Below are positions 17,701-64,000 of a stretch of DNA of 64,000 nucleotides, in pieces. Source of the stretch: Pythium myriotylum. Its lineage: Eukaryota > Oomycota > Peronosporomycetes > Pythiales > Pythiaceae. Each line of letters starts with the position of its first letter. Positions within the stretch are counted from its first letter, which is position 1. A program made the position numbers and the translations under genes. Location: assembly GCA_023091665.1 (NCBI GenBank), contig JALJCQ010000019.1:722802-786801 (forward strand), in the 5' to 3' direction. The notes under the pieces are model-generated. The model ran no database searches. It was not told where the DNA came from and saw only the letters and a program-made list of their open reading frames with translations.

Positions 17701-17728
17701 GGGTTTAGGGTTTAGGGTTTAGGGTTTA
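17701..17728 (+). repeat. Innermost interstitial telomeric repeats
   Basis: Four TTTAGGG-type units abut the end of the helicase reading frame. They mark the original healed chromosome end onto which the array was built. Confidence 0.9.
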
Positions 17729-17778
17729 GAGAGGCTTGAAGTGACTTGCAAAGACTTGGTCAGGGAAACTACGACCCA
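17729..17778 (-). mobile_element. Penelope-like element, 3'-end fragment m1
   Basis: Only the last 50 bp of the element are present, from GAGAGGCTTG to ACGACCCA. They are followed by CAGGG and two TTTAGGG units (17780-17794). It stops at almost the same place as fragment m5 near the other end of the array. Confidence 0.85.
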
Positions 17779-17794
17779 CAGGGTTTAGGGTTTA

Positions 17795-17977
17795 GAGAGG
17801 CTTGAAGTGACTTGCAAAGACTTGGTCAGGGAAACTACGACCCAAAGAGTTGCTCTATTACAGATGCAGGGGCTCTTTCGACTTGATGTCTTCGTCGGTG
17901 GGCGTCTTCGTGCTGAGTGGAAAATTGAAAACTGAGGAAGACCGCCGACCTCGCCCCCGGGTGCCTACGCTAAAGTC
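17795..17977 (-). mobile_element. Penelope-like element, 3'-end fragment m2
   Basis: The last 183 bp of the element end at TAAAGTC, followed by three to four TTTAGGG units (17978-18000) and then full copy C1. Confidence 0.88.
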
Positions 17978-18165
17978 TAGGGTTTAGGGTTTAGGGTTTA
18001 GAGAGGCTTGAAGTGACTTGCAAAGACTTGGTCAGGGAAACTACGACCCAAAGAGTTGCTCTATTACAGATGCAGGGGCTCTTTCGACTTGATGTCTTCG
18101 TCGGTGGGCGTCTTCGTGCTGAGTGGAAAATTGAAAACTGAGGAAGACCGCCGACCTCGCCCCCG

Positions 18166-18203
18166 GGTGCCTACGCTAAAGTCCTACGCTAGAGTCCTAC
18201 GCT
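18166..18203. repeat. Short tandem repeat CCTACGCT, 3 copies
   Basis: Three units of about 13 bp (GTCCTACGCTA-like) lie in the 3' region of every long copy. Fragment m2 is truncated inside this repeat. Confidence 0.6.
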
Positions 18204-18302
18204 TCTGGGTTCTAGGGCTGGACAGGAACTTGAGTGTTCTGGGTCTGCGTGTCTGTGCTGCTGGGGTCTTGAGACACGTGAGAATATTCGACGTCCTGGG
18301 TT

Positions 18303-18364
18303 GAACATTCTCGAACATTCTCGGGAATATTCTCGAATGTTCGGTCGAACGTTCTCGAACCTTC
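18303..18364. promoter_or_regulatory. Heat-shock-element array (12 half sites) in the element 3' region
   Basis: Three blocks of GAAnnTTCnnGAAnnTTC follow each other with 4-nt gaps, giving 12 half sites of the heat-shock-factor consensus. An extra GAATATTC is at 18282-18289 and a CACGTG at 18275-18280. Equivalent arrays start at 21880, 25457, 29034, 32611, 36188, 39765, 43802, 46670, 50247, 53824, 57401 and 60978. In the head-to-tail array each lies ~360 bp upstream of ORF1 of the next inner copy. Confidence 0.7.
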
Positions 18365-18402
18365 GACAAACTTTTCGACTGGGTTGGCCGAAATTTTCGT
18401 CT

Positions 18403-18449
18403 GGGTTTAGGGTTTAGGGTAGGGTTTGGGGTTGAGGGTCGGGGATGGG
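18403..18449 (+). repeat. Degenerate telomeric tract inside the element
   Basis: GGGTTTAGGGTTTAGGGTAGGG is followed by decaying variants (TTTGGGG, TTGAGGG, TCGGGG, ATGGG). It is present at the same offset in every copy that reaches it. It looks like an old 3' junction fixed inside the element. Confidence 0.8.
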
Positions 18450-18683
18450 TTGTAGACAGATAGTGCACGATCCGGGCGGCCATTCTTGAATTTGCTCGCA
18501 ATATGCCAAGCGTTCGCTGTTACCCTTTCGAGGGGGATCATCCCAAGCCAGCCGCTCCGTGAGCCTTCACTGCACGACCCCATACTCTGTGGCATGGTTC
18601 CAAATGAGTGGGTAGCAGCAAGGCTAAACACGTTCTCGCGCGCTGGAAGGGCACGGTCATCCGTGTCCGGGGTGGTCCAGGCT

Positions 18684-20576
18684 TTAATGCATGGCATCTC
18701 CCGAGCTGTTCTTGAAGTGGTCGTCGTAGATGTTGGCCCTGAACTCTGATGGACAGAGTATGTCTCGGAGGTTCCGTGGACGGCGGTAGCACACAGTGAT
18801 CTTGATGTTGTGGGCTGCGAACTCGTCTTCAATACGGTGGGCTTGATAGATAGCTCGTAGTTGTTTCCGAGTTGGGCCGTTCGGGTCATAAGGCACAGAC
18901 AAGAAGACTTGCTTGGGCTTGCCGAGTTCCGTGGTTGGCCGCGTCGTCTGTTGTGCTTCTTCTTGTAGCTTGGCGATTCTTTCGATGGCGTCGCGGAAAT
19001 GGTCTCTAAGCTGGTTAGAGTTGTATCCGCGAGCTGCCAGGCGCTGGAAGAAGGCTCTGACTTGAGACAGGAAATCTTCCTTCCTGGTGTTCTGGCGGTA
19101 ATACTTCTGGACAATGCCGATGATGAGGCCTTTCAGAACGCCTGGAGGGTGTGCGCTTTGAGCCGCGATGTAGAGATAGAGATTGAGCTCTTTCTCATGA
19201 GTTCGAGTCTCGTATCTCGTGTCGGATCGGCGGATTTTGAGGTCAAGAAACGGTGCTTCACGACCGCGTTCCATGTACGTCCAGCGAAGTCCTGGAATCG
19301 TGTTGAGGCGGATCTTGAAGAGTTCGAAAGCACGGGGATCTTTTCCGTCTTGCCAAATCAAAAACACGTCGTCGATGTAGCGCTTGTAGAGCACGATGTA
19401 GTTGCTGAACTCTCGAAGGATGCTTCGCTCGTGATACGCTACGTAGAGTGATGCGTACGTGGGGGCACATGGTGTTCCCATGGCGGTGCCCTTGATTTGC
19501 TTCCACACGCAGTCTCCGAACATGAACAAGTTCTCGTTCATGATGTAGTCGAGACCTTGGACGATCACATTCTCGAAGCGATGCTTCTCTTCTTGGAGCA
19601 TGGCTTTGATTGTTGCGATGCCGATGTTGGTGGGGATGTTGGTGTAGAGCGAGACGGCGTCAAATGTGAACAAACGATGCTTGGGGCTGGGCTGAATCTG
19701 TCGAAGTTCAGTCAGCAGCGTGTCGGAGTCTCGAAGGTACGATGGCTGTCGCTGGAGCATGTCTTGCAACTGGAAATCGATCCACTTCGAGAGACCGGCT
19801 GTCGGTGTTCCGCAGCTGGCAATGATAGGGCGAATGGCGAGATCCTCCTTGTGGAGCTTTATCAGGCCATAGAAGCGTCCTAACTTGCACGAACTTGGAT
19901 TACACTTGATGACAGCAACTTGTCGTTGGATGACTGGATCTTCACGGTACTGGTAGTTGAGTAGCATGTAGATCAGGTTCACTTTGGCTGCGATCCGTTG
20001 GATCTGGGTCTCTGGTCCGTTGGGAAGACGATACAATGGCGTGTATGTCTCCTCGTCACTCAGGTGATCAAGACACATGGAAGTGTACTGTGATCGAAGC
20101 ATGAGCGTCGGGCCGAGGTTCTTGTCTGCCTGCACGACCATCAAGTTCGGATCATTTCGTAGCAATCGTAGCAAGTTGCGTTGGTTGCTGTCGAGGTTGA
20201 ACTTGTGTCGGAAGGGATACTGTGCAATGAGTTCGGTCGCGTGTGACTTGATCGACTCCAGTAAATCTTCTTGATGGCGTGGCAGGTGGTTTGGCTGGAA
20301 AGCAAGGTTTGGAACGTAGATCTTCGAGTTGTAGTCGCGGTCGCTGGAGTCAGCAAACTGGACTGCAATTCGAAGAGACCGGACGAGTTTGGGGAAGATG
20401 GTAACTGGCGAGAGGGAAGAGCGTTGCGGCGGAGGTGTCGGGCAGAACTTGAGGTTCAGACCCAGGAGTCTCTTCAGACCTGGTGGAATCTTGGTGCCAC
20501 GTGGTGTGAGATTGTGGAACGCGAGATTGCGAGGCAATGCGTCCACATCACAAGCCCTACGACAGCCGAAGATCAA
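18684..20576 (-). CDS. Penelope-like reverse transcriptase, no GIY-YIG domain (C1)
   Basis: Synthesises DNA on the element RNA, most likely primed by the chromosome 3' end. Numbering from the first TTG (20576), 630 residues: the Penelope-type N-terminal block LLGLNLKFCP (37-46); ADKNLGPT (150-157); RPIIASCGTPTAGLS (249-263); motif A TFDAVSLYTNIP with Asp306; GTAMGTPCAP (363-372); catalytic YIDD 400-403 in KRYIDDVFLIW; FLDLKI (443-448); AHPPGVLKG. The protein stops soon after CYRRPRNLRDILCPS, exactly where Penelope elements normally continue into GIY-YIG. The frame has no ATG before Met146, which lies inside the conserved core, yet it is open upstream to 20879. Translation therefore probably comes from ORF1 by -1 frameshifting at 20798-20804 (about 944 aa fusion); splicing is an alternative. 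Confidence 0.93.
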   Translation of the reverse strand: MIFGCRRACDVDALPRNLAFHNLTPRGTKIPPGLKRLLGLNLKFCPTPPPQRSSLSPVTIFPKLVRSLRIAVQFADSSDRDYNSKIYVPNLAFQPNHLPRHQEDLLESIKSHATELIAQYPFRHKFNLDSNQRNLLRLLRNDPNLMVVQADKNLGPTLMLRSQYTSMCLDHLSDEETYTPLYRLPNGPETQIQRIAAKVNLIYMLLNYQYREDPVIQRQVAVIKCNPSSCKLGRFYGLIKLHKEDLAIRPIIASCGTPTAGLSKWIDFQLQDMLQRQPSYLRDSDTLLTELRQIQPSPKHRLFTFDAVSLYTNIPTNIGIATIKAMLQEEKHRFENVIVQGLDYIMNENLFMFGDCVWKQIKGTAMGTPCAPTYASLYVAYHERSILREFSNYIVLYKRYIDDVFLIWQDGKDPRAFELFKIRLNTIPGLRWTYMERGREAPFLDLKIRRSDTRYETRTHEKELNLYLYIAAQSAHPPGVLKGLIIGIVQKYYRQNTRKEDFLSQVRAFFQRLAARGYNSNQLRDHFRDAIERIAKLQEEAQQTTRPTTELGKPKQVFLSVPYDPNGPTRKQLRAIYQAHRIEDEFAAHNIKITVCYRRPRNLRDILCPSEFRANIYDDHFKNSSGDAMH

Positions 20577-20608
20577 ACTGGCGTTGAAGAGATCCGAGCG
20601 GTCGCGTC

Positions 20609-21517
20609 TTATGATCGCGCGGTTTTGGCGCCGCGCGGCGGTTTGTCGGCGGCGTTGCTCCTTTTCCTTTTGCTTGCGCTTCGCGTGTTGCCGTTTCTTC
20701 CGCTGTTTGAGGCGGAAGTTCCCTTTGCGGCGTCGGCCTTTGGTGCAGGGTGCTTCTTGTTCTTGCTGACGGTCGCACCCTTCGCGCCAGCTCTGGCGTT
20801 TTTTCGTTCCTGTTGCTTTGGAACCTTCCGGTCGATACGGAGCTGTCGTAGTTCGTTCTTGATCGATTGTAGCTTGCGATCAATCAACACGTTCACGAGA
20901 TCCTGGTTTGGAGTTTCCACCTCCATGTCGGCAGCCGCGGCTTGCTTGGCTTGCTTGTCGACGAGTCGGATGCTCGCATCAGCTTGGCTGTATCGTTCCG
21001 CAAGCTCAAACTGGGTCAGGCGAGCTTCGAACTCGTCCTTGGCATGGTGGTAGATGTCGACATATGCGTTCTCGTCTCGATCTTCTTCTTCCATGGCATC
21101 CCAGTTGATAGTGTCATACTTGCCGTTCGGGTCGGCTTTGCATGCGAGCTTGCAGTACTCAAGTGCTCGATCTTGGAAATCGTCTCGGAGCTTCTGAACT
21201 TGGAGCTCAAGTTGTTCGAGTTCGGCTTTCTGTACGCTGAGGATGAGATCGAAGGCTTGGTGCTGAAACTGTAGCTTCAGAGCATCGAATTGATTCATCA
21301 GCGTGAGCACTCGAGTTGGAAGGGCCGTCTGGAGTTCGTTGGAGACAACAAGCTTGGCCTGTACTCGCAGGGATCTGGGTACTTCTTGGCGTTCGCGTTG
21401 TTGTTGCATCTTGCGGAGGCTCTCTTGCTTCGCGCTGAGCTTCCGGTGCAGCTTCTTATAGCGCTCCAGATACTCCAGGGTGGTCTTCATCAGTGGGCGC
21501 GGCAGACTACGATCCAT
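20609..21517 (-). CDS. ORF1, coiled-coil and basic protein (C1)
   Basis: The ATG at 21517 sits in a good context (ATCGCCATGG), 51 nt from the element 5' end. The 302 aa have helical, heptad-like stretches near residues 11-45 and 72-125 (for example LEQLELQVQKLRDD) and a shorter one near 215-235. The C-terminal ~70 residues are strongly basic, with KRKRS as a possible nuclear signal or RNA-binding tail. No enzyme motif is seen. By analogy with ORF1 of Athena-type elements it may multimerise, bind RNA or guide the particle to telomeres; this is inference. Its last ~90 codons overlap the RT frame. Confidence 0.85.
   Translation of the reverse strand: MDRSLPRPLMKTTLEYLERYKKLHRKLSAKQESLRKMQQQRERQEVPRSLRVQAKLVVSNELQTALPTRVLTLMNQFDALKLQFQHQAFDLILSVQKAELEQLELQVQKLRDDFQDRALEYCKLACKADPNGKYDTINWDAMEEEDRDENAYVDIYHHAKDEFEARLTQFELAERYSQADASIRLVDKQAKQAAAADMEVETPNQDLVNVLIDRKLQSIKNELRQLRIDRKVPKQQERKNARAGAKGATVSKNKKHPAPKADAAKGTSASNSGRNGNTRSASKRKRSNAADKPPRGAKTARS
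20798..20804 (-). promoter_or_regulatory. Predicted -1 ribosomal frameshift site A_AAA_AAC
   Basis: The heptamer reads A AAA AAC in the ORF1 frame (codons 239-240). It lies inside the 271-nt ORF1/RT overlap, and the -1 frame is free of stops from 20879 to the RT. A GC stem (CGCCA/TGGCG, 4-nt loop) starts almost at once. A 7-bp stem AGGGTGC/GCACCCT begins 17 nt further on. Equivalent sites: 24375, 27952, 31529, 35106, 38683, 42260, 49165, 52742, 56319, 59896 and 63473 (7 nt each). Confidence 0.6.
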
Positions 21518-22260
21518 GGCGATGATGGAGAGTCTTTCCTTAATTGCTTCGTCACGCGGGGCTTGGTCTAGGGTTTAGAGAGGCTTGAAGTGACTTGCAA
21601 AGACTTGGTCAGGGAAACTACGACCCAAAGAGTTGCTCTATTACAGATGCAGGGGCTCTTTCGACTTGATGTCTTCGTCGGTGGGCGTCTTCGTGCTGAG
21701 TGGAAAATTGAAAACTGAGGAAGACCGCCGACCTCGCCCCCGGGTGCCTACGCTAAAGTCCTACGCTAGAGTCCTACGCTTCTGGGTTCTAGGGCTGGAC
21801 AGGAACTTGAGTGTTCTGGGTCTGCGTGTCTGTGCTGCTGGGGTCTTGAGACACGTGAGAATATTCGACGTCCTGGGTTGAACATTCTCGAACATTCTCG
21901 GGAATATTCTCGAATGTTCGGTCGAACGTTCTCGAACCTTCGACAAACTTTTCGACTGGGTTGGCCGAAATTTTCGTCTGGGTTTAGGGTTTAGGGTAGG
22001 GTTTGGGGTTGAGGGTCGGGGATGGGTTGTAGACAGATAGTGCACGATCCGGGCGGCCATTCTTGAATTTGCTCGCAATATGCCAAGCGTTCGCTGTTAC
22101 CCTTTCGAGGGGGATCATCCCAAGCCAGCCGCTCCGTGAGCCTTCACTGCACGACCCCATACTCTGTGGCATGGTTCCAAATGAGTGGGTAGCAGCAAGG
22201 CTAAACACGTTCTCGCGCGCTGGAAGGGCACGGTCATCCGTGTCCGGGGTGGTCCAGGCT

Positions 22261-24153
22261 TTAATGCATGGCATCTCCCGAGCTGTTCTTGAAGTGGTCG
22301 TCGTAGATGTTGGCCCTGAACTCTGATGGACAGAGTATGTCTCGGAGGTTCCGTGGACGGCGGTAGCACACAGTGATCTTGATGTTGTGGGCTGCGAACT
22401 CGTCTTCAATACGGTGGGCTTGATAGATAGCTCGTAGTTGTTTCCGAGTTGGGCCGTTCGGGTCATAAGGCACAGACAAGAAGACTTGCTTGGGCTTGCC
22501 GAGTTCCGTGGTTGGCCGCGTCGTCTGTTGTGCTTCTTCTTGTAGCTTGGCGATTCTTTCGATGGCGTCGCGGAAATGGTCTCTAAGCTGGTTAGAGTTG
22601 TATCCGCGAGCTGCCAGGCGCTGGAAGAAGGCTCTGACTTGAGACAGGAAATCTTCCTTCCTGGTGTTCTGGCGGTAATACTTCTGGACAATGCCGATGA
22701 TGAGGCCTTTCAGAACGCCTGGAGGGTGTGCGCTTTGAGCCGCGATGTAGAGATAGAGATTGAGCTCTTTCTCATGAGTTCGAGTCTCGTATCTCGTGTC
22801 GGATCGGCGGATTTTGAGGTCAAGAAACGGTGCTTCACGACCGCGTTCCATGTACGTCCAGCGAAGTCCTGGAATCGTGTTGAGGCGGATCTTGAAGAGT
22901 TCGAAAGCACGGGGATCTTTTCCGTCTTGCCAAATCAAAAACACGTCGTCGATGTAGCGCTTGTAGAGCACGATGTAGTTGCTGAACTCTCGAAGGATGC
23001 TTCGCTCGTGATACGCTACGTAGAGTGATGCGTACGTGGGGGCACATGGTGTTCCCATGGCGGTGCCCTTGATTTGCTTCCACACGCAGTCTCCGAACAT
23101 GAACAAGTTCTCGTTCATGATGTAGTCGAGACCTTGGACGATCACATTCTCGAAGCGATGCTTCTCTTCTTGGAGCATGGCTTTGATTGTTGCGATGCCG
23201 ATGTTGGTGGGGATGTTGGTGTAGAGCGAGACGGCGTCAAATGTGAACAAACGATGCTTGGGGCTGGGCTGAATCTGTCGAAGTTCAGTCAGCAGCGTGT
23301 CGGAGTCTCGAAGGTACGATGGCTGTCGCTGGAGCATGTCTTGCAACTGGAAATCGATCCACTTCGAGAGACCGGCTGTCGGTGTTCCGCAGCTGGCAAT
23401 GATAGGGCGAATGGCGAGATCCTCCTTGTGGAGCTTTATCAGGCCATAGAAGCGTCCTAACTTGCACGAACTTGGATTACACTTGATGACAGCAACTTGT
23501 CGTTGGATGACTGGATCTTCACGGTACTGGTAGTTGAGTAGCATGTAGATCAGGTTCACTTTGGCTGCGATCCGTTGGATCTGGGTCTCTGGTCCGTTGG
23601 GAAGACGATACAATGGCGTGTATGTCTCCTCGTCACTCAGGTGATCAAGACACATGGAAGTGTACTGTGATCGAAGCATGAGCGTCGGGCCGAGGTTCTT
23701 GTCTGCCTGCACGACCATCAAGTTCGGATCATTTCGTAGCAATCGTAGCAAGTTGCGTTGGTTGCTGTCGAGGTTGAACTTGTGTCGGAAGGGATACTGT
23801 GCAATGAGTTCGGTCGCGTGTGACTTGATCGACTCCAGTAAATCTTCTTGATGGCGTGGCAGGTGGTTTGGCTGGAAAGCAAGGTTTGGAACGTAGATCT
23901 TCGAGTTGTAGTCGCGGTCGCTGGAGTCAGCAAACTGGACTGCAATTCGAAGAGACCGGACGAGTTTGGGGAAGATGGTAACTGGCGAGAGGGAAGAGCG
24001 TTGCGGCGGAGGTGTCGGGCAGAACTTGAGGTTCAGACCCAGGAGTCTCTTCAGACCTGGTGGAATCTTGGTGCCACGTGGTGTGAGATTGTGGAACGCG
24101 AGATTGCGAGGCAATGCGTCCACATCACAAGCCCTACGACAGCCGAAGATCAA
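22261..24153 (-). CDS. Penelope-like reverse transcriptase (C2)
   Basis: Identical product to C1, with Ala at residue 471. Confidence 0.9.
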   Translation of the reverse strand: MIFGCRRACDVDALPRNLAFHNLTPRGTKIPPGLKRLLGLNLKFCPTPPPQRSSLSPVTIFPKLVRSLRIAVQFADSSDRDYNSKIYVPNLAFQPNHLPRHQEDLLESIKSHATELIAQYPFRHKFNLDSNQRNLLRLLRNDPNLMVVQADKNLGPTLMLRSQYTSMCLDHLSDEETYTPLYRLPNGPETQIQRIAAKVNLIYMLLNYQYREDPVIQRQVAVIKCNPSSCKLGRFYGLIKLHKEDLAIRPIIASCGTPTAGLSKWIDFQLQDMLQRQPSYLRDSDTLLTELRQIQPSPKHRLFTFDAVSLYTNIPTNIGIATIKAMLQEEKHRFENVIVQGLDYIMNENLFMFGDCVWKQIKGTAMGTPCAPTYASLYVAYHERSILREFSNYIVLYKRYIDDVFLIWQDGKDPRAFELFKIRLNTIPGLRWTYMERGREAPFLDLKIRRSDTRYETRTHEKELNLYLYIAAQSAHPPGVLKGLIIGIVQKYYRQNTRKEDFLSQVRAFFQRLAARGYNSNQLRDHFRDAIERIAKLQEEAQQTTRPTTELGKPKQVFLSVPYDPNGPTRKQLRAIYQAHRIEDEFAAHNIKITVCYRRPRNLRDILCPSEFRANIYDDHFKNSSGDAMH

Positions 24154-24185
24154 ACTGGCGTTGAAGAGATCCGAGCGGTCGCGTC

Positions 24186-25094
24186 TTATGATCGCGCGGT
24201 TTTGGCGCCGCGCGGCGGTTTGTCGGCGGCGTTGCTCCTTTTCCTTTTGCTTGCGCTTCGCGTGTTGCCGTTTCTTCCGCTGTTTGAGGCGGAAGTTCCC
24301 TTTGCGGCGTCGGCCTTTGGTGCAGGGTGCTTCTTGTTCTTGCTGACGGTCGCACCCTTCGCGCCAGCTCTGGCGTTTTTTCGTTCCTGTTGCTTTGGAA
24401 CCTTCCGGTCGATACGGAGCTGTCGTAGTTCGTTCTTGATCGATTGTAGCTTGCGATCAATCAACACGTTCACGAGATCCTGGTTTGGAGTTTCCACCTC
24501 CATGTCGGCAGCCGCGGCTTGCTTGGCTTGCTTGTCGACGAGTCGGATGCTCGCATCAGCTTGGCTGTATCGTTCCGCAAGCTCAAACTGGGTCAGGCGA
24601 GCTTCGAACTCGTCCTTGGCATGGTGGTAGATGTCGACATATGCGTTCTCGTCTCGATCTTCTTCTTCCATGGCATCCCAGTTGATAGTGTCATACTTGC
24701 CGTTCGGGTCGGCTTTGCATGCGAGCTTGCAGTACTCAAGTGCTCGATCTTGGAAATCGTCTCGGAGCTTCTGAACTTGGAGCTCAAGTTGTTCGAGTTC
24801 GGCTTTCTGTACGCTGAGGATGAGATCGAAGGCTTGGTGCTGAAACTGTAGCTTCAGAGCATCGAATTGATTCATCAGCGTGAGCACTCGAGTTGGAAGG
24901 GCCGTCTGGAGTTCGTTGGAGACAACAAGCTTGGCCTGTACTCGCAGGGATCTGGGTACTTCTTGGCGTTCGCGTTGTTGTTGCATCTTGCGGAGGCTCT
25001 CTTGCTTCGCGCTGAGCTTCCGGTGCAGCTTCTTATAGCGCTCCAGATACTCCAGGGTGGTCTTCATCAGTGGGCGCGGCAGACTACGATCCAT
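24186..25094 (-). CDS. ORF1 coiled-coil protein (C2)
   Basis: 302 aa, identical to C1. The array at 25457-25518 in C3 is its candidate upstream control region. Confidence 0.83.
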   Translation of the reverse strand: MDRSLPRPLMKTTLEYLERYKKLHRKLSAKQESLRKMQQQRERQEVPRSLRVQAKLVVSNELQTALPTRVLTLMNQFDALKLQFQHQAFDLILSVQKAELEQLELQVQKLRDDFQDRALEYCKLACKADPNGKYDTINWDAMEEEDRDENAYVDIYHHAKDEFEARLTQFELAERYSQADASIRLVDKQAKQAAAADMEVETPNQDLVNVLIDRKLQSIKNELRQLRIDRKVPKQQERKNARAGAKGATVSKNKKHPAPKADAAKGTSASNSGRNGNTRSASKRKRSNAADKPPRGAKTARS

Positions 25095-25837
25095 GGCGAT
25101 GATGGAGAGTCTTTCCTTAATTGCTTCGTCACGCGGGGCTTGGTCTAGGGTTTAGAGAGGCTTGAAGTGACTTGCAAAGACTTGGTCAGGGAAACTACGA
25201 CCCAAAGAGTTGCTCTATTACAGATGCAGGGGCTCTTTCGACTTGATGTCTTCGTCGGTGGGCGTCTTCGTGCTGAGTGGAAAATTGAAAACTGAGGAAG
25301 ACCGCCGACCTCGCCCCCGGGTGCCTACGCTAAAGTCCTACGCTAGAGTCCTACGCTTCTGGGTTCTAGGGCTGGACAGGAACTTGAGTGTTCTGGGTCT
25401 GCGTGTCTGTGCTGCTGGGGTCTTGAGACACGTGAGAATATTCGACGTCCTGGGTTGAACATTCTCGAACATTCTCGGGAATATTCTCGAATGTTCGGTC
25501 GAACGTTCTCGAACCTTCGACAAACTTTTCGACTGGGTTGGCCGAAATTTTCGTCTGGGTTTAGGGTTTAGGGTAGGGTTTGGGGTTGAGGGTCGGGGAT
25601 GGGTTGTAGACAGATAGTGCACGATCCGGGCGGCCATTCTTGAATTTGCTCGCAATATGCCAAGCGTTCGCTGTTACCCTTTCGAGGGGGATCATCCCAA
25701 GCCAGCCGCTCCGTGAGCCTTCACTGCACGACCCCATACTCTGTGGCATGGTTCCAAATGAGTGGGTAGCAGCAAGGCTAAACACGTTCTCGCGCGCTGG
25801 AAGGGCACGGTCATCCGTGTCCGGGGTGGTCCAGGCT

Positions 25838-27730: not shown

Positions 27731-27762
27731 ACTGGCGTTGAAGAGATCCGAGCGGTCGCGTC

Positions 27763-31307: not shown

Positions 31308-31339
31308 ACTGGCGTTGAAGAGATCCGAGCGGTCGCGTC

Positions 31340-34884: not shown

Positions 34885-34916
34885 ACTGGCGTTGAAGAGA
34901 TCCGAGCGGTCGCGTC

Positions 34917-48943: not shown

Positions 48944-48975
48944 ACTGGCGTTGAAGAGATCCGAGCGGTCGCGTC

Positions 48976-52520: not shown

Positions 52521-52552
52521 ACTGGCGTTGAAGAGATCCGAGCGGTCGCGTC

Positions 52553-53461: not shown

Positions 53462-54204
53462 GGCGATGATGGAGAGTCTTTCCTTAATTGCTTCGTCACG
53501 CGGGGCTTGGTCTAGGGTTTAGAGAGGCTTGAAGTGACTTGCAAAGACTTGGTCAGGGAAACTACGACCCAAAGAGTTGCTCTATTACAGATGCAGGGGC
53601 TCTTTCGACTTGATGTCTTCGTCGGTGGGCGTCTTCGTGCTGAGTGGAAAATTGAAAACTGAGGAAGACCGCCGACCTCGCCCCCGGGTGCCTACGCTAA
53701 AGTCCTACGCTAGAGTCCTACGCTTCTGGGTTCTAGGGCTGGACAGGAACTTGAGTGTTCTGGGTCTGCGTGTCTGTGCTGCTGGGGTCTTGAGACACGT
53801 GAGAATATTCGACGTCCTGGGTTGAACATTCTCGAACATTCTCGGGAATATTCTCGAATGTTCGGTCGAACGTTCTCGAACCTTCGACAAACTTTTCGAC
53901 TGGGTTGGCCGAAATTTTCGTCTGGGTTTAGGGTTTAGGGTAGGGTTTGGGGTTGAGGGTCGGGGATGGGTTGTAGACAGATAGTGCACGATCCGGGCGG
54001 CCATTCTTGAATTTGCTCGCAATATGCCAAGCGTTCGCTGTTACCCTTTCGAGGGGGATCATCCCAAGCCAGCCGCTCCGTGAGCCTTCACTGCACGACC
54101 CCATACTCTGTGGCATGGTTCCAAATGAGTGGGTAGCAGCAAGGCTAAACACGTTCTCGCGCGCTGGAAGGGCACGGTCATCCGTGTCCGGGGTGGTCCA
54201 GGCT

Positions 54205-56097: not shown

Positions 56098-56129
56098 ACT
56101 GGCGTTGAAGAGATCCGAGCGGTCGCGTC

Positions 56130-57038
56130 TTATGATCGCGCGGTTTTGGCGCCGCGCGGCGGTTTGTCGGCGGCGTTGCTCCTTTTCCTTTTGCTTGCGC
56201 TTCGCGTGTTGCCGTTTCTTCCGCTGTTTGAGGCGGAAGTTCCCTTTGCGGCGTCGGCCTTTGGTGCAGGGTGCTTCTTGTTCTTGCTGACGGTCGCACC
56301 CTTCGCGCCAGCTCTGGCGTTTTTTCGTTCCTGTTGCTTTGGAACCTTCCGGTCGATACGGAGCTGTCGTAGTTCGTTCTTGATCGATTGTAGCTTGCGA
56401 TCAATCAACACGTTCACGAGATCCTGGTTTGGAGTTTCCACCTCCATGTCGGCAGCCGCGGCTTGCTTGGCTTGCTTGTCGACGAGTCGGATGCTCGCAT
56501 CAGCTTGGCTGTATCGTTCCGCAAGCTCAAACTGGGTCAGGCGAGCTTCGAACTCGTCCTTGGCATGGTGGTAGATGTCGACATATGCGTTCTCGTCTCG
56601 ATCTTCTTCTTCCATGGCATCCCAGTTGATAGTGTCATACTTGCCGTTCGGGTCGGCTTTGCATGCGAGCTTGCAGTACTCAAGTGCTCGATCTTGGAAA
56701 TCGTCTCGGAGCTTCTGAACTTGGAGCTCAAGTTGTTCGAGTTCGGCTTTCTGTACGCTGAGGATGAGATCGAAGGCTTGGTGCTGAAACTGTAGCTTCA
56801 GAGCATCGAATTGATTCATCAGCGTGAGCACTCGAGTTGGAAGGGCCGTCTGGAGTTCGTTGGAGACAACAAGCTTGGCCTGTACTCGCAGGGATCTGGG
56901 TACTTCTTGGCGTTCGCGTTGTTGTTGCATCTTGCGGAGGCTCTCTTGCTTCGCGCTGAGCTTCCGGTGCAGCTTCTTATAGCGCTCCAGATACTCCAGG
57001 GTGGTCTTCATCAGTGGGCGCGGCAGACTACGATCCAT
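56130..57038 (-). CDS. ORF1 coiled-coil protein (C11)
   Basis: Identical to C1. Confidence 0.83.
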   Translation of the reverse strand: MDRSLPRPLMKTTLEYLERYKKLHRKLSAKQESLRKMQQQRERQEVPRSLRVQAKLVVSNELQTALPTRVLTLMNQFDALKLQFQHQAFDLILSVQKAELEQLELQVQKLRDDFQDRALEYCKLACKADPNGKYDTINWDAMEEEDRDENAYVDIYHHAKDEFEARLTQFELAERYSQADASIRLVDKQAKQAAAADMEVETPNQDLVNVLIDRKLQSIKNELRQLRIDRKVPKQQERKNARAGAKGATVSKNKKHPAPKADAAKGTSASNSGRNGNTRSASKRKRSNAADKPPRGAKTARS

Positions 57039-57781
57039 GGCGATGATGGAGAGTCTTTCCTTAATTGCTTCGTCACGCGGGGCTTGGTCTAGGGTTTAGA
57101 GAGGCTTGAAGTGACTTGCAAAGACTTGGTCAGGGAAACTACGACCCAAAGAGTTGCTCTATTACAGATGCAGGGGCTCTTTCGACTTGATGTCTTCGTC
57201 GGTGGGCGTCTTCGTGCTGAGTGGAAAATTGAAAACTGAGGAAGACCGCCGACCTCGCCCCCGGGTGCCTACGCTAAAGTCCTACGCTAGAGTCCTACGC
57301 TTCTGGGTTCTAGGGCTGGACAGGAACTTGAGTGTTCTGGGTCTGCGTGTCTGTGCTGCTGGGGTCTTGAGACACGTGAGAATATTCGACGTCCTGGGTT
57401 GAACATTCTCGAACATTCTCGGGAATATTCTCGAATGTTCGGTCGAACGTTCTCGAACCTTCGACAAACTTTTCGACTGGGTTGGCCGAAATTTTCGTCT
57501 GGGTTTAGGGTTTAGGGTAGGGTTTGGGGTTGAGGGTCGGGGATGGGTTGTAGACAGATAGTGCACGATCCGGGCGGCCATTCTTGAATTTGCTCGCAAT
57601 ATGCCAAGCGTTCGCTGTTACCCTTTCGAGGGGGATCATCCCAAGCCAGCCGCTCCGTGAGCCTTCACTGCACGACCCCATACTCTGTGGCATGGTTCCA
57701 AATGAGTGGGTAGCAGCAAGGCTAAACACGTTCTCGCGCGCTGGAAGGGCACGGTCATCCGTGTCCGGGGTGGTCCAGGCT

Positions 57782-59674
57782 TTAATGCATGGCATCTCCC
57801 GAGCTGTTCTTGAAGTGGTCGTCGTAGATGTTGGCCCTGAACTCTGATGGACAGAGTATGTCTCGGAGGTTCCGTGGACGGCGGTAGCACACAGTGATCT
57901 TGATGTTGTGGGCTGCGAACTCGTCTTCAATACGGTGGGCTTGATAGATAGCTCGTAGTTGTTTCCGAGTTGGGCCGTTCGGGTCATAAGGCACAGACAA
58001 GAAGACTTGCTTGGGCTTGCCGAGTTCCGTGGTTGGCCGCGTCGTCTGTTGTGCTTCTTCTTGTAGCTTGGCGATTCTTTCGATGGCGTCGCGGAAATGG
58101 TCTCTAAGCTGGTTAGAGTTGTATCCGCGAGCTGCCAGGCGCTGGAAGAAGGCTCTGACTTGAGACAGGAAATCTTCCTTCCTGGTGTTCTGGCGGTAAT
58201 ACTTCTGGACAATGCCGATGATGAGGCCTTTCAGAACGCCTGGAGGGTGTGCGCTTTGAGCCACGATGTAGAGATAGAGATTGAGCTCTTTCTCATGAGT
58301 TCGAGTCTCGTATCTCGTGTCGGATCGGCGGATTTTGAGGTCAAGAAACGGTGCTTCACGACCGCGTTCCATGTACGTCCAGCGAAGTCCTGGAATCGTG
58401 TTGAGGCGGATCTTGAAGAGTTCGAAAGCACGGGGATCTTTTCCGTCTTGCCAAATCAAAAACACGTCGTCGATGTAGCGCTTGTAGAGCACGATGTAGT
58501 TGCTGAACTCTCGAAGGATGCTTCGCTCGTGATACGCTACGTAGAGTGATGCGTACGTGGGGGCACATGGTGTTCCCATGGCGGTGCCCTTGATTTGCTT
58601 CCACACGCAGTCTCCGAACATGAACAAGTTCTCGTTCATGATGTAGTCGAGACCTTGGACGATCACATTCTCGAAGCGATGCTTCTCTTCTTGGAGCATG
58701 GCTTTGATTGTTGCGATGCCGATGTTGGTGGGGATGTTGGTGTAGAGCGAGACGGCGTCAAATGTGAACAAACGATGCTTGGGGCTGGGCTGAATCTGTC
58801 GAAGTTCAGTCAGCAGCGTGTCGGAGTCTCGAAGGTACGATGGCTGTCGCTGGAGCATGTCTTGCAACTGGAAATCGATCCACTTCGAGAGACCGGCTGT
58901 CGGTGTTCCGCAGCTGGCAATGATAGGGCGAATGGCGAGATCCTCCTTGTGGAGCTTTATCAGGCCATAGAAGCGTCCTAACTTGCACGAACTTGGATTA
59001 CACTTGATGACAGCAACTTGTCGTTGGATGACTGGATCTTCACGGTACTGGTAGTTGAGTAGCATGTAGATCAGGTTCACTTTGGCTGCGATCCGTTGGA
59101 TCTGGGTCTCTGGTCCGTTGGGAAGACGATACAATGGCGTGTATGTCTCCTCGTCACTCAGGTGATCAAGACACATGGAAGTGTACTGTGATCGAAGCAT
59201 GAGCGTCGGGCCGAGGTTCTTGTCTGCCTGCACGACCATCAAGTTCGGATCATTTCGTAGCAATCGTAGCAAGTTGCGTTGGTTGCTGTCGAGGTTGAAC
59301 TTGTGTCGGAAGGGATACTGTGCAATGAGTTCGGTCGCGTGTGACTTGATCGACTCCAGTAAATCTTCTTGATGGCGTGGCAGGTGGTTTGGCTGGAAAG
59401 CAAGGTTTGGAACGTAGATCTTCGAGTTGTAGTCGCGGTCGCTGGAGTCAGCAAACTGGACTGCAATTCGAAGAGACCGGACGAGTTTGGGGAAGATGGT
59501 AACTGGCGAGAGGGAAGAGCGTTGCGGCGGAGGTGTCGGGCAGAACTTGAGGTTCAGACCCAGGAGTCTCTTCAGACCTGGTGGAATCTTGGTGCCACGT
59601 GGTGTGAGATTGTGGAACGCGAGATTGCGAGGCAATGCGTCCACATCACAAGCCCTACGACAGCCGAAGATCAA
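57782..59674 (-). CDS. Penelope-like reverse transcriptase (C12, Val471)
   Basis: Same product as C9. Confidence 0.9.
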   Translation of the reverse strand: MIFGCRRACDVDALPRNLAFHNLTPRGTKIPPGLKRLLGLNLKFCPTPPPQRSSLSPVTIFPKLVRSLRIAVQFADSSDRDYNSKIYVPNLAFQPNHLPRHQEDLLESIKSHATELIAQYPFRHKFNLDSNQRNLLRLLRNDPNLMVVQADKNLGPTLMLRSQYTSMCLDHLSDEETYTPLYRLPNGPETQIQRIAAKVNLIYMLLNYQYREDPVIQRQVAVIKCNPSSCKLGRFYGLIKLHKEDLAIRPIIASCGTPTAGLSKWIDFQLQDMLQRQPSYLRDSDTLLTELRQIQPSPKHRLFTFDAVSLYTNIPTNIGIATIKAMLQEEKHRFENVIVQGLDYIMNENLFMFGDCVWKQIKGTAMGTPCAPTYASLYVAYHERSILREFSNYIVLYKRYIDDVFLIWQDGKDPRAFELFKIRLNTIPGLRWTYMERGREAPFLDLKIRRSDTRYETRTHEKELNLYLYIVAQSAHPPGVLKGLIIGIVQKYYRQNTRKEDFLSQVRAFFQRLAARGYNSNQLRDHFRDAIERIAKLQEEAQQTTRPTTELGKPKQVFLSVPYDPNGPTRKQLRAIYQAHRIEDEFAAHNIKITVCYRRPRNLRDILCPSEFRANIYDDHFKNSSGDAMH

Positions 59675-59706
59675 ACTGGCGTTGAAGAGATCCGAGCGGT
59701 CGCGTC

Positions 59707-60615
59707 TTATGATCGCGCGGTTTTGGCGCCGCGCGGCGGTTTGTCGGCGGCGTTGCTCCTTTTCCTTTTGCTTGCGCTTCGCGTGTTGCCGTTTCTTCCG
59801 CTGTTTGAGGCGGAAGTTCCCTTTGCGGCGTCGGCCTTTGGTGCAGGGTGCTTCTTGTTCTTGCTGACGGTCGCACCCTTCGCGCCAGCTCTGGCGTTTT
59901 TTCGTTCCTGTTGCTTTGGAACCTTCCGGTCGATACGGAGCTGTCGTAGTTCGTTCTTGATCGATTGTAGCTTGCGATCAATCAACACGTTCACGAGATC
60001 CTGGTTTGGAGTTTCCACCTCCATGTCGGCAGCCGCGGCTTGCTTGGCTTGCTTGTCGACGAGTCGGATGCTCGCATCAGCTTGGCTGTATCGTTCCGCA
60101 AGCTCAAACTGGGTCAGGCGAGCTTCGAACTCGTCCTTGGCATGGTGGTAGATGTCGACATATGCGTTCTCGTCTCGATCTTCTTCTTCCATGGCATCCC
60201 AGTTGATAGTGTCATACTTGCCGTTCGGGTCGGCTTTGCATGCGAGCTTGCAGTACTCAAGTGCTCGATCTTGGAAATCGTCTCGGAGCTTCTGAACTTG
60301 GAGCTCAAGTTGTTCGAGTTCGGCTTTCTGTACGCTGAGGATGAGATCGAAGGCTTGGTGCTGAAACTGTAGCTTCAGAGCATCGAATTGATTCATCAGC
60401 GTGAGCACTCGAGTTGGAAGGGCCGTCTGGAGTTCGTTGGAGACAACAAGCTTGGCCTGTACTCGCAGGGATCTGGGTACTTCTTGGCGTTCGCGTTGTT
60501 GTTGCATCTTGCGGAGGCTCTCTTGCTTCGCGCTGAGCTTCCGGTGCAGCTTCTTATAGCGCTCCAGATACTCCAGGGTGGTCTTCATCAGTGGGCGCGG
60601 CAGACTACGATCCAT
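59707..60615 (-). CDS. ORF1 coiled-coil protein (C12)
   Basis: Identical to C1. Confidence 0.83.
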   Translation of the reverse strand: MDRSLPRPLMKTTLEYLERYKKLHRKLSAKQESLRKMQQQRERQEVPRSLRVQAKLVVSNELQTALPTRVLTLMNQFDALKLQFQHQAFDLILSVQKAELEQLELQVQKLRDDFQDRALEYCKLACKADPNGKYDTINWDAMEEEDRDENAYVDIYHHAKDEFEARLTQFELAERYSQADASIRLVDKQAKQAAAADMEVETPNQDLVNVLIDRKLQSIKNELRQLRIDRKVPKQQERKNARAGAKGATVSKNKKHPAPKADAAKGTSASNSGRNGNTRSASKRKRSNAADKPPRGAKTARS

Positions 60616-61358
60616 GGCGATGATGGAGAGTCTTTCCTTAATTGCTTCGTCACGCGGGGCTTGGTCTAGGGTTTAGAGAGGCTTGAAGTGACTTGCAAAG
60701 ACTTGGTCAGGGAAACTACGACCCAAAGAGTTGCTCTATTACAGATGCAGGGGCTCTTTCGACTTGATGTCTTCGTCGGTGGGCGTCTTCGTGCTGAGTG
60801 GAAAATTGAAAACTGAGGAAGACCGCCGACCTCGCCCCCGGGTGCCTACGCTAAAGTCCTACGCTAGAGTCCTACGCTTCTGGGTTCTAGGGCTGGACAG
60901 GAACTTGAGTGTTCTGGGTCTGCGTGTCTGTGCTGCTGGGGTCTTGAGACACGTGAGAATATTCGACGTCCTGGGTTGAACATTCTCGAACATTCTCGGG
61001 AATATTCTCGAATGTTCGGTCGAACGTTCTCGAACCTTCGACAAACTTTTCGACTGGGTTGGCCGAAATTTTCGTCTGGGTTTAGGGTTTAGGGTAGGGT
61101 TTGGGGTTGAGGGTCGGGGATGGGTTGTAGACAGATAGTGCACGATCCGGGCGGCCATTCTTGAATTTGCTCGCAATATGCCAAGCGTTCGCTGTTACCC
61201 TTTCGAGGGGGATCATCCCAAGCCAGCCGCTCCGTGAGCCTTCACTGCACGACCCCATACTCTGTGGCATGGTTCCAAATGAGTGGGTAGCAGCAAGGCT
61301 AAACACGTTCTCGCGCGCTGGAAGGGCACGGTCATCCGTGTCCGGGGTGGTCCAGGCT

Positions 61359-63251
61359 TTAATGCATGGCATCTCCCGAGCTGTTCTTGAAGTGGTCGTC
61401 GTAGATGTTGGCCCTGAACTCTGATGGACAGAGTATGTCTCGGAGGTTCCGTGGACGGCGGTAGCACACAGTGATCTTGATGTTGTGGGCTGCGAACTCG
61501 TCTTCAATACGGTGGGCTTGATAGATAGCTCGTAGTTGTTTCCGAGTTGGGCCGTTCGGGTCATAAGGCACAGACAAGAAGACTTGCTTGGGCTTGCCGA
61601 GTTCCGTGGTTGGCCGCGTCGTCTGTTGTGCTTCTTCTTGTAGCTTGGCGATTCTTTCGATGGCGTCGCGGAAATGGTCTCTAAGCTGGTTAGAGTTGTA
61701 TCCGCGAGCTGCCAGGCGCTGGAAGAAGGCTCTGACTTGAGACAGGAAATCTTCCTTCCTGGTGTTCTGGCGGTAATACTTCTGGACAATGCCGATGATG
61801 AGGCCTTTCAGAACGCCTGGAGGGTGTGCGCTTTGAGCCACGATGTAGAGATAGAGATTGAGCTCTTTCTCATGAGTTCGAGTCTCGTATCTCGTGTCGG
61901 ATCGGCGGATTTTGAGGTCAAGAAACGGTGCTTCACGACCGCGTTCCATGTACGTCCAGCGAAGTCCTGGAATCGTGTTGAGGCGGATCTTGAAGAGTTC
62001 GAAAGCACGGGGATCTTTTCCGTCTTGCCAAATCAAAAACACGTCGTCGATGTAGCGCTTGTAGAGCACGATGTAGTTGCTGAACTCTCGAAGGATGCTT
62101 CGCTCGTGATACGCTACGTAGAGTGATGCGTACGTGGGGGCACATGGTGTTCCCATGGCGGTGCCCTTGATTTGCTTCCACACGCAGTCTCCGAACATGA
62201 ACAAGTTCTCGTTCATGATGTAGTCGAGACCTTGGACGATCACATTCTCGAAGCGATGCTTCTCTTCTTGGAGCATGGCTTTGATTGTTGCGATGCCGAT
62301 GTTGGTGGGGATGTTGGTGTAGAGCGAGACGGCGTCAAATGTGAACAAACGATGCTTGGGGCTGGGCTGAATCTGTCGAAGTTCAGTCAGCAGCGTGTCG
62401 GAGTCTCGAAGGTACGATGGCTGTCGCTGGAGCATGTCTTGCAACTGGAAATCGATCCACTTCGAGAGACCGGCTGTCGGTGTTCCGCAGCTGGCAATGA
62501 TAGGGCGAATGGCGAGATCCTCCTTGTGGAGCTTTATCAGGCCATAGAAGCGTCCTAACTTGCACGAACTTGGATTACACTTGATGACAGCAACTTGTCG
62601 TTGGATGACTGGATCTTCACGGTACTGGTAGTTGAGTAGCATGTAGATCAGGTTCACTTTGGCTGCGATCCGTTGGATCTGGGTCTCTGGTCCGTTGGGA
62701 AGACGATACAATGGCGTGTATGTCTCCTCGTCACTCAGGTGATCAAGACACATGGAAGTGTACTGTGATCGAAGCATGAGCGTCGGGCCGAGGTTCTTGT
62801 CTGCCTGCACGACCATCAAGTTCGGATCATTTCGTAGCAATCGTAGCAAGTTGCGTTGGTTGCTGTCGAGGTTGAACTTGTGTCGGAAGGGATACTGTGC
62901 AATGAGTTCGGTCGCGTGTGACTTGATCGACTCCAGTAAATCTTCTTGATGGCGTGGCAGGTGGTTTGGCTGGAAAGCAAGGTTTGGAACGTAGATCTTC
63001 GAGTTGTAGTCGCGGTCGCTGGAGTCAGCAAACTGGACTGCAATTCGAAGAGACCGGACGAGTTTGGGGAAGATGGTAACTGGCGAGAGGGAAGAGCGTT
63101 GCGGCGGAGGTGTCGGGCAGAACTTGAGGTTCAGACCCAGGAGTCTCTTCAGACCTGGTGGAATCTTGGTGCCACGTGGTGTGAGATTGTGGAACGCGAG
63201 ATTGCGAGGCAATGCGTCCACATCACAAGCCCTACGACAGCCGAAGATCAA
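61359..63251 (-). CDS. Penelope-like reverse transcriptase (C13, Val471)
   Basis: Same product as C9. No ORF1 start remains upstream, so expression is doubtful. Confidence 0.88.
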   Translation of the reverse strand: MIFGCRRACDVDALPRNLAFHNLTPRGTKIPPGLKRLLGLNLKFCPTPPPQRSSLSPVTIFPKLVRSLRIAVQFADSSDRDYNSKIYVPNLAFQPNHLPRHQEDLLESIKSHATELIAQYPFRHKFNLDSNQRNLLRLLRNDPNLMVVQADKNLGPTLMLRSQYTSMCLDHLSDEETYTPLYRLPNGPETQIQRIAAKVNLIYMLLNYQYREDPVIQRQVAVIKCNPSSCKLGRFYGLIKLHKEDLAIRPIIASCGTPTAGLSKWIDFQLQDMLQRQPSYLRDSDTLLTELRQIQPSPKHRLFTFDAVSLYTNIPTNIGIATIKAMLQEEKHRFENVIVQGLDYIMNENLFMFGDCVWKQIKGTAMGTPCAPTYASLYVAYHERSILREFSNYIVLYKRYIDDVFLIWQDGKDPRAFELFKIRLNTIPGLRWTYMERGREAPFLDLKIRRSDTRYETRTHEKELNLYLYIVAQSAHPPGVLKGLIIGIVQKYYRQNTRKEDFLSQVRAFFQRLAARGYNSNQLRDHFRDAIERIAKLQEEAQQTTRPTTELGKPKQVFLSVPYDPNGPTRKQLRAIYQAHRIEDEFAAHNIKITVCYRRPRNLRDILCPSEFRANIYDDHFKNSSGDAMH

Positions 63252-63283
63252 ACTGGCGTTGAAGAGATCCGAGCGGTCGCGTC

Positions 63284-63530
63284 TTATGATCGCGCGGTTT
63301 TGGCGCCGCGCGGCGGTTTGTCGGCGGCGTTGCTCCTTTTCCTTTTGCTTGCGCTTCGCGTGTTGCCGTTTCTTCCGCTGTTTGAGGCGGAAGTTCCCTT
63401 TGCGGCGTCGGCCTTTGGTGCAGGGTGCTTCTTGTTCTTGCTGACGGTCGCACCCTTCGCGCCAGCTCTGGCGTTTTTTCGTTCCTGTTGCTTTGGAACC
63501 TTCCGGTCGATACGGAGCTGTCGTAGTTCG
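63284..63530 (-). pseudogene. ORF1 C-terminal remnant (C13)
   Basis: The last ~82 codons of ORF1. The 5' part was lost at the telomere junction. Confidence 0.85.
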
Positions 63531-63660
63531 TTTAGGGTTTAGGGTTTAGGGTTTAGGGTTTAGGGTTTAGGGTTTAGGGTTTAGGGTTTAGGGTTTAGGG
63601 TTTAGGGTTTAGGGTTTAGGGTTTAGGGTTTAGGGTTTAGGGTTTAGGGTTTAGGGTTTA
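63531..63660 (+). repeat. Penultimate telomeric repeat tract
   Basis: About 18-19 perfect TTTAGGG units between C13 and fragment m5; an earlier chromosome end. Confidence 0.95.
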
Positions 63661-63709
63661 GAGAGGCTTGAAGTGACTTGCAAAGACTTGGTCAGGGAAA
63701 CTACGACCC
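63661..63709 (-). mobile_element. Penelope-like element, 3'-end fragment m5
   Basis: 49 bp from GAGAGGCTTG to CTACGACCC, the most recent visible insertion. It is embedded in the telomere, with repeats on both sides. Confidence 0.92.
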
Positions 63710-64000
63710 TAGGGTTTAGGGTTTAGGGTTTAGGGTTTAGGGTTTAGGGTTTAGGGTTTAGGGTTTAGGGTTTAGGGTTTAGGGTTTAGGGTTTAGGGTT
63801 TAGGGTTTAGGGTTTAGGGTTTAGGGTTTAGGGTTTAGGGTTTAGGGTTTAGGGTTTAGGGTTTAGGGTTTAGGGTTTAGGGTTTAGGGTTTAGGGTTTA
63901 GGGTTTAGGGTTTAGGGTTTAGGGTTTAGGGTTTAGGGTTTAGGGTTTAGGGTTAGGGTTTAGGGTTTAGGGTTTAGGGTTTAGGGTTTAGGGTTTAGGA
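63710..64000 (+). repeat. Telomere (TTTAGGG)n
   Basis: About 41 units of TTTAGGG with the G-rich strand running toward the right end, as at a right-hand chromosome end. One unit near 63950-63956 is the 6-bp variant TTAGGG. The window ends within the array. Confidence 0.97.

What the first reader, a model, noticed from the sequence alone, without database searches (positions are those of the whole stretch)
17701..64000. 46 kb terminal array made only of one endonuclease-less Penelope-like element and telomeric repeats
All insertions share one orientation. 3' ends face inward, 5' ends face the telomere, all truncations are 5', and every junction carries TTTAGGG. This is the signature of attachment of retroelement RNA to chromosome ends. 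EN(-) Penelope-like elements at telomeres are known, but a near-uniform array of 11 full-length copies reaching the capped end, in what looks like an oomycete, is unusual and could be an auxiliary way of lengthening chromosome ends.
Basis: partly seen in the sequence, partly recalled or inferred. Interest (0 to 1): 0.9.

Follow-up and report, generated by a model that had tools for sequence, protein, structure and literature searches.

The report
Retroelement arrays cap chromosome ends
In a genome that is likely from a Pythium-like water mould, 25 contig ends carry copies of one retroelement, all pointing the same way and joined by telomere repeats; the element's own predicted telomerase-like enzyme likely puts copies onto worn telomeres, and DNA recombination then likely multiplies them into long arrays.

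Summary
Window 17.7-64 kb is a contig end made only of telomere repeats and one 3,569-nt reverse-transcriptase element: 11 complete and 7 five-prime-truncated copies, one orientation. Genome-wide, all 237 sites of a probe at the element's 3' end fall at contig ends with one polarity (232 placed directly, 5 by inference), on 25 ends. The predicted enzyme resembles telomerase most and no endonuclease was found, so the reading 'EN-deficient, telomere-associated Penelope-like element' is supported; that kind is known.

Copy-by-copy attachment is not. Complete copies repeat at an exact 3,577-bp period with one identical 8-nt seam. Alleles are mostly uniform within arrays. Higher-order repeats (4 x 259 bp, about 3 x 6,280 bp, 94 junctions at 133 bp) repeat a truncation together with its seam. 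I infer two layers: reverse transcription onto short telomeres (7 junction types stop at E50-52, the foot of a predicted RNA hairpin), then array growth by recombination, as published for MoTeR arrays of blast fungus. A telomerase (TERT) domain is encoded, so any lengthening role is auxiliary, and it is untested. Copy numbers need ultra-long reads.

The parts
17699..17727 (+). Innermost telomere tract, between the subtelomere and the first element copy
17728..17977 (-). Two truncated copies, E1-51 and E1-184, joined by a short telomere tract
18000..43283 (-). Proximal block: 7 identical complete copies (E1-3569) with 8-nt seams, then E1-245
18000..21568 (-). One complete copy, the reference element E (E1 = 18000 is the 3' end, E3569 = 21568 the 5' end)
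20609..21517 (-). ORF1, 302 aa, no Pfam match
18684..20879 (-). ORF2 open frame, 731 codons, reverse transcriptase; the part folded is 18684-20576 (630 aa)
20798..20804 (-). Slippery heptamer A AAA AAC in the ORF1 zero frame, in the ORF1/ORF2 overlap (predicted -1 frameshift site)
18050..18084 (-). Predicted RNA hairpin E51-E85, whose 3' foot is the recurrent 5'-end position E50-52
18403..18427 (+). Internal telomere-like motif of the element, about E404-428
21569..21576 (+). Invariant seam TAGGGTTT between complete copies (first of 11 in the window)
43307..43430 (-). Truncated copy E1-124, with telomere tracts on both sides
43499..46274 (-). Truncated copy E1-2775 with its own variants, then a telomere tract
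46367..63532 (-). Distal block: 4 complete copies and E1-2858, all five with G1166A
63660..63709 (-). Truncated copy E1-50, last before the terminal telomere
63710..64000 (+). Terminal telomere tract, 291 bp

Best explanation
The array consists of copies of one retroelement with a predicted telomerase-like reverse transcriptase and no detected endonuclease, whose RNA is likely copied by that enzyme onto the 3' overhang of a shortened telomere, and whose blocks are then likely multiplied by recombination or break-induced replication through the telomere-repeat seams. SHOWN: terminal location and single polarity; start at E1 behind telomere tracts; variable 5' ends carrying telomere repeats; one invariant seam between complete copies; block-wise alleles; truncation-plus-seam pairs duplicated as a unit; a host TERT domain; a TERT-like predicted fold. 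INFERRED: membership of the Penelope-like elements; pairing of the RNA 3' end (...CUCUAAACCC) with the G-rich overhang; stopping of the enzyme at the E51 hairpin; healing of 5' ends by host telomerase; growth of arrays by a chromosome end invading an interstitial telomere motif of its own or another array, or by copying a circle. The element would thus supply both the first copies and the seams on which recombination works.
For: Polarity and location: 237 of 237 3'-end sites. Amplification at DNA level: 157 of 157 exact complete 5' ends run into the same seam and a further copy, none into a telomere tract; at E503, 49 of 52 adjacent in-block pairs share the allele against a shuffle mean of 29.2, maximum 42 in 20,000; G1166A occurs in 10 of 91 copies as two runs of five; C17 has 4 x 259 bp with a private SNP and a 28-nt seam, C13 has truncation E2675 with a 28-nt seam three times, C30 has 94 junctions at 133-bp spacing. 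A footprint of invasion: on the C3 right end a telomere tract runs into the internal motif region and repeats a neighbour's E471 truncation and 19-nt seam. Attachment: 16 of 66 tabulated ends at E50-52 with 7 junction types, at the foot of a predicted hairpin. Interstitial tracts (48, median 45.5 nt) all shorter than terminal ones (21, median 276 nt). Microhomology 1.32 against 0.74 nt in 59 regular junctions. TERT-like model. Published parallels: PMC3846280, PMC7367193, PMC8381367.
Against: No RNA, protein activity or reads. Recombination with erosion and healing could make most of the pattern without a working enzyme. The E51 hairpin is not unusually stable (23% of 35-nt windows of the element fold as well or better) and is weak in 2 of 6 folding contexts. 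Homogeneity is incomplete: mixed alleles in the C11 pair and two isolated G1301A copies on C17. Enrichment of E50-52 ends at the outermost place is not significant, p 0.12. 9 of 18 blocks with complete copies end at E193-442, which would also fit a multimeric or circular RNA template. Short interstitial tracts could have shrunk after burial. Tests were chosen after seeing the data.
Confidence: 0.68

Rival explanations
1. Recombination only: the element is a passive subtelomeric repeat today, and erosion, telomerase healing and break-induced replication through interstitial telomere tracts make the whole pattern.
For: Duplicated truncation-plus-seam pairs and the C3 right-end footprint show that such copying happens; invasion of long tracts would also give starts at E1; MoTeR arrays behave this way.
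Against: Seven junction types fall within three nucleotides, E50-52, which random erosion does not predict; both ORFs are open in the copies of this window.
Confidence: 0.17
2. Long or circular RNA template: transcripts run through several copies, or are circular, and the enzyme copies many units in one go, so arrays arise by reverse transcription.
For: Identical seams, no capped complete 5' end, random outer ends, and 9 of 18 ends at E193-442 as pLTR-like RNA starts would give. PLEs are tandem and start internally (PMC11167929).
Against: Cannot explain units that contain a telomere tract between truncated copies (C17 259 bp, C13 6,280 bp). Needs synthesis of up to about 27 kb. No ribozyme found by Rfam in the unit.
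Confidence: 0.1
3. Copy-by-copy retrotransposition, the first reader's reading: each complete copy was attached separately.
For: Polarity, 5' truncations, telomere repeats behind truncated copies.
Against: Identical 8-nt seam at 157 of 157 exact complete 5' ends, against tracts of 12-127 nt behind truncated copies; block-wise alleles.
Confidence: 0.02
4. Assembly artefact: repeat copy number, or the tandem order, was made by the assembler.
For: Identical runs of 14-27 kb exceed many read lengths; the C26 right array stops at a contig end of round length and the C30 array abuts 2,500 N.
Against: The 3,577-bp junction lies on many contig ends with different alleles and outer ends; 20 of 21 measured ends finish in 207-305 nt of telomere.
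Confidence: 0.03

Closest known systems
EN-deficient, telomere-associated Penelope-like elements (Athena of bdelloid rotifers; fungal, protist and plant relatives)
   Same: Found at chromosome ends, no endonuclease, telomerase-like RT, telomere repeats added to truncated 5' ends (PMC3846280, passages)
   Different: Here long homogenised arrays with one invariant telomere-repeat seam, higher-order repeats and a 133-bp satellite; I saw no such description in the passages read. Two overlapping ORFs with a predicted -1 frameshift.
MoTeR telomeric retrotransposons of the blast fungus
   Same: 5' ends toward the telomere, truncated copies, arrays whose equal interstitial tracts were explained by D-loop or break-induced copying, long arrays after TERT deletion (PMC7367193 and PMC8381367, passages)
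   Different: MoTeRs are a different retrotransposon type with a predicted endonuclease (PMC7367193); here none was found, and a TERT domain is present
Canonical Penelope-like elements such as PAc of the green anole
   Same: Tandem or partial-tandem organisation with pseudo-LTRs (PMC11167929, first of four parts)
   Different: PAc has a GIY-YIG endonuclease and a hammerhead ribozyme motif; neither was found here

Membership tests
EN-deficient telomeric PLE | Telomerase-like reverse transcriptase | tested here: met
EN-deficient telomeric PLE | Groups with named PLEs in a tree | not tested
   No named PLE sequence was at hand; no call returned a hit labelled Penelope. Motif resemblance is recalled.
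EN-deficient telomeric PLE | No GIY-YIG endonuclease | tested here: met
   No endonuclease family in the three element ORFs given nor in any of 44 aligned RTs, E <= 0.01; the C-terminal part of the model is barely covered by the fold search
EN-deficient telomeric PLE | At chromosome ends, 3' end inward | tested here: met
   237 of 237 3'-end sites
EN-deficient telomeric PLE | Telomere repeats on truncated 5' ends | tested here: met
   66 tabulated ends
Canonical PLE | Hammerhead ribozyme motif | tested here: inconclusive
   Rfam scan of 17600-22100 at E <= 1 gave only a sub-threshold snoRNA match; degenerate motifs can be missed
MoTeR-like telomeric non-LTR element | Endonuclease-bearing non-LTR retrotransposon | tested here: not met
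   No endonuclease family found; works like MoTeR arrays in growth, but is not filed as one
Recombination-based array growth (D-loop/BIR, as in MoTeR arrays) | Identical interstitial tracts between repeated units | tested here: met
   157 identical seams; 28-nt seams repeated on C17 and C13
Recombination-based array growth (D-loop/BIR, as in MoTeR arrays) | Telomerase absent, as in the TERT-deleted strains | tested here: not met
   TERT RNA-binding domain on C12, E 7.4e-11; activity unknown
Recombination-based array growth (D-loop/BIR, as in MoTeR arrays) | D-loop or extrachromosomal-circle intermediates | not testable with these tools
   No DNA or reads at hand

The most novel reading that the evidence does not exclude
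A wild organism that has telomerase also runs a retroelement-seeded second telomere system: a telomerase-like selfish element drops single copies onto critically short telomeres, and each copy brings a built-in telomere seam that lets the chromosome lengthen itself by recombination in 3.6-kb steps, so that element and ALT-like copying act as one chromosome-end maintenance machine at many ends.
Probability: 0.25. Interest if true: 0.85.

Novelty: new variant of a known kind. Interest (0 to 1): 0.62.

Why it matters
PLEs share a common ancestor with telomerase (PMC3846280), and whether their EN-deficient members extend chromosome ends or only live there is, to my knowledge, open. Here one genome shows at nucleotide resolution what look like both steps: single attachments with a recurrent stop, and amplified arrays with their own marks. 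That makes the retrotransposition and recombination parts separable and directly testable, in an organism that still encodes telomerase, next to the arrays described in telomerase-deleted blast fungus. It also shows a retroelement turning into satellite DNA (a 133-bp repeat) at a chromosome end.

Tried and rejected
Independent copy-by-copy attachment: rejected for multi-copy blocks (identical seams, block-wise alleles). Template jumping between random RNAs: disfavoured by within-block allele identity. Starts at the internal telomere-like motif as a test of homology-driven starts: the exact pattern occurs once against 77 starts at E1, but a second, altered case is on the C3 right end, so at least 2; this argues against short-motif invasion as the main way, not against invasion of long tracts. 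Enrichment of E50-52 ends at the outermost place: 8 of 21 against 8 of 45, p 0.12. Ribozyme in the unit: none found. Unusual structure behind the slippery heptamer: z 0.11 and -1.42. The 129- and 150-nt 3' regions do not fold better than shuffles (z 0.06 and 0.54). PDB by single sequence: no hit; by profile, group II-like RT at best E 0.0006. Naming the host through the neighbouring AAA_11 ORF: none of 7,992 candidates scored.

Rows dropped before counts: the 66 tabulated block ends were typed by hand; repeats of the C17 259-bp and C13 6,280-bp units were counted once, rows inside the element's own telomere-like motif were removed, and irregular junctions were left out (C4 E1250, C3 right E1550, C12 about E139, C13 and C21 E270, C28 about E428-434). 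Microhomology used 59 of the 66. Arrays on C26 right, C12 left, C24 and C30 have no observed outer end and are not among the 18 blocks; one of those 18 (C21 E270) is not among the 66, so the 0-copy against 1-or-more-copy split printed is off by one. Interstitial tract lengths (n = 48) leave out the 8-nt seams, the innermost tract of each end, repeats of duplicated seams and a few irregular tracts. Most telomeric right ends were fetched because the element was there, so only left ends give an unselected rate.
Full report
WHAT IS THERE. The window is the right end of contig C19 (786,801 bp) of a 58.7-Mb, 55-contig assembly. From the telomere tract at 17,699 to the end it holds only one element and telomere repeats. 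I number the element E1-E3569 from its 3' end outward to its 5' end; E1 is at 18000 in the first complete copy. There are 7 complete copies (18000-43030), 4 complete copies (46367-60666) and 7 truncated ones, all with 3' ends inward and all cut on the 5' side. Within each block complete copies follow each other at an exact 3,577-bp period with one seam, TAGGGTTT. The 7 proximal complete copies are identical; the distal block of 4 complete copies and one truncated copy shares one SNP, G1166A.

GENOME-WIDE. A 24-nt probe at the element 3' end finds 237 sites at up to 2 mismatches, 70 forward and 167 reverse. Of these, 157 are complete-copy junctions and 77 are starts behind a regular telomere tract. 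The other three are starts behind irregular tracts on C4, C13 and C39. All 77 tract starts are listed; they and the 58 junctions typed lie within 46.3 kb of a contig end, reverse at left ends and forward at right ends. A further 94 junctions are in the fetched C30 left end. The last 5 are placed on the C39 left end by subtraction and by the complete allele lists. The element is on 25 contig ends. All 55 left contig ends were looked at, 10 kb for C1-C20 and 200 bp or more for the rest. Fourteen end in telomere repeats, and 11 of those carry the element; C14, C27 and C53 do not (for C27 and C53 the absence rests alone).

WHY NOT COPY BY COPY. First, the 13-mer at the complete 5' end occurs 160 times; 3 are isolated internal sites (C9, C12, C14), and the other 157 equal the number of complete-copy junctions. 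So no exact complete 5' end is capped directly by a telomere tract. Second, alleles are block-wise: at E503, 49 of 52 adjacent in-block pairs agree, against a shuffle mean of 29.2 and a maximum of 42 in 20,000. G1166A is in 10 of 91 copies, five in a row on C12 and five in a row in this window. G1301A is in 8 of 89 copies, six in a row on C13 and two isolated ones on C17. These two, and a mixed pair on C11, show that homogeneity is incomplete. Third, higher-order repeats carry a truncation together with its telomere seam: C17 has 4 x 259 bp (E1-231 with private G104A plus a 28-nt seam); C13 has about 3 x 6,280 bp (truncation E2675, 28-nt seam, alternating E503 allele); C30 has 94 junctions at 133-bp spacing (E3496-3569, seam, E1-51), bordering 2,500 N. 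Independent attachments do not do this. Fourth, among 18 blocks with at least one complete copy and a seen outer end, 10 have one, one has two and 7 have 4-7; a memoryless process fitted to all blocks expects 2.4 of 66 with four or more (p about 0.01, post hoc). Fifth, the C3 right end keeps what looks like a footprint of invasion: behind a truncation at E1550 a telomere tract runs into the internal-motif region of the element and repeats the neighbour's E471 truncation and 19-nt seam.

WHY ATTACHMENT AS WELL. Starts behind telomere tracts are at E1: 77 by pattern, against one exact start at the internal telomere-like motif and the altered one on C3. Outer ends scatter, but 16 of 66 tabulated ones lie at E50-52, with 7 different junction types by position and telomere phase, so probably at least 7 events. 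Random erosion does not predict that; an enzyme stopping at a structure does. The 3' foot of a predicted hairpin, E51-E85, lies exactly there, with pairing probabilities of 0.73-0.98 in four of six folding contexts and 0.08-0.24 in the other two; 23% of 35-nt windows of the element fold as well or better. Healed ends show slight microhomology with the telomere phase (mean 1.32 against 0.74 nt, 0 of 5,000 simulations as high), as expected of telomerase. Interstitial tracts (n = 48, median 45.5 nt, 12-127) are all shorter than terminal ones (n = 21, median 276, 207-575). I infer that additions happen at worn telomeres; shrinkage of buried tracts is an alternative. All these tests were chosen after seeing the data.

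A RUN-THROUGH READING. Nine of 18 blocks end at E193-442 beyond a complete copy (uniform p about 1e-6, post hoc). That is what pLTR-like RNAs starting in the neighbouring copy would leave. It is the main support for a multimeric or circular RNA template, which I keep as a rival; it does not explain the 259-bp and 6,280-bp repeats.

AGAINST WHAT IS KNOWN. [quoted passage not shown] the 2007 paper behind this is not held, and I know it only from citations and recall). Tandem PLEs are known (PMC11167929, first of four parts read). Arrays with identical interstitial tracts, explained by D-loop or break-induced copying, are described for MoTeR elements, with long arrays after telomerase deletion (PMC7367193 and PMC8381367, passages). 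In the searches I saw no listing that describes such arrays for a PLE or for an oomycete; an oomycete telomere-to-telomere paper does not contain the word Penelope in its main text (PMC11139960, passages). The library holds only open-licence papers, so this is weak evidence of absence. I rate the case a new variant of a known kind.

EXPRESSION. The only zero-frame slippery heptamer of ORF1 of the type searched, A AAA AAC, lies in the ORF1/ORF2 overlap (codon shuffles: 2% for A AAA AAC or U UUA AAC, 8% for any). A 955-aa relative has a weakly ORF1-like N-terminus (21% identity over 102 residues) fused to the RT. This predicts a fusion by -1 frameshifting; the downstream RNA is unremarkable.

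CAVEATS. Copy numbers in identical runs of 14-27 kb cannot be trusted without spanning reads. Host identity is inferred from one protein hit. No RNA, protein or reads were examined.

Noticed in passing
window 20798-20804 (-), repeated in each complete copy: Canonical -1 frameshift heptamer A AAA AAC in the ORF1/ORF2 overlap; a 955-aa relative (P0046) has an ORF1-like start fused to the RT.
   Followed up: partly
G000:C30:2501-15135 (L031, L032): A 133-bp satellite made of the element's junction (E3496-3569, seam, E1-51), 94 junctions, next to 2,500 N.
   Followed up: partly
L035 (C3 right end) and G000:C3:448-480: Telomere tracts that run into the element's internal telomere-like region instead of E1, one repeating a neighbour's E471 truncation and 19-nt seam.
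   Followed up: partly
protein P0123: The only ORF1 homologue found (70% identical, same 302-aa length) has as its longest contig one of 3,577 bases, the same number as this element's period; possibly a collapsed tandem unit of a relative.
   Followed up: no
contig ends such as window 63994-64000, L045, L052, L058: Many assembled ends stop in the same register, TTTAGG or TTTAGGA, with 207-305 nt of telomere, as if the real chromosome end had been read.
   Followed up: no
G000:C6:1-60 (L016): The C6 left telomere ends in a run of C (G on the other strand), unlike the other ends seen.
   Followed up: no
window 13117-13499: Tandem repeat with a unit of about 49 bp (also seen as 95 and 144 bp) in the subtelomere.
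   Followed up: no
window 6741-7628 (-): ORF with an HNH_2 endonuclease match, E 1.3e-07, above its cut-off; it lies outside the element array.
   Followed up: no
window 15779-17452 (+): ORF of 557 aa with an AAA_11 match, E 1.9e-09, next to the array; a protein search found no homologue.
   Followed up: partly
window 10224-12053 (+): ORF of 609 aa with a sub-threshold Retrotrans_gag match, E 9.8e-05.
   Followed up: no
assembly G000: Several small contigs and C26 have lengths in multiples of 2,500 bp, and several begin with N; the C26 right array stops at such an end, which suggests cutting by scaffolding software.
   Followed up: no
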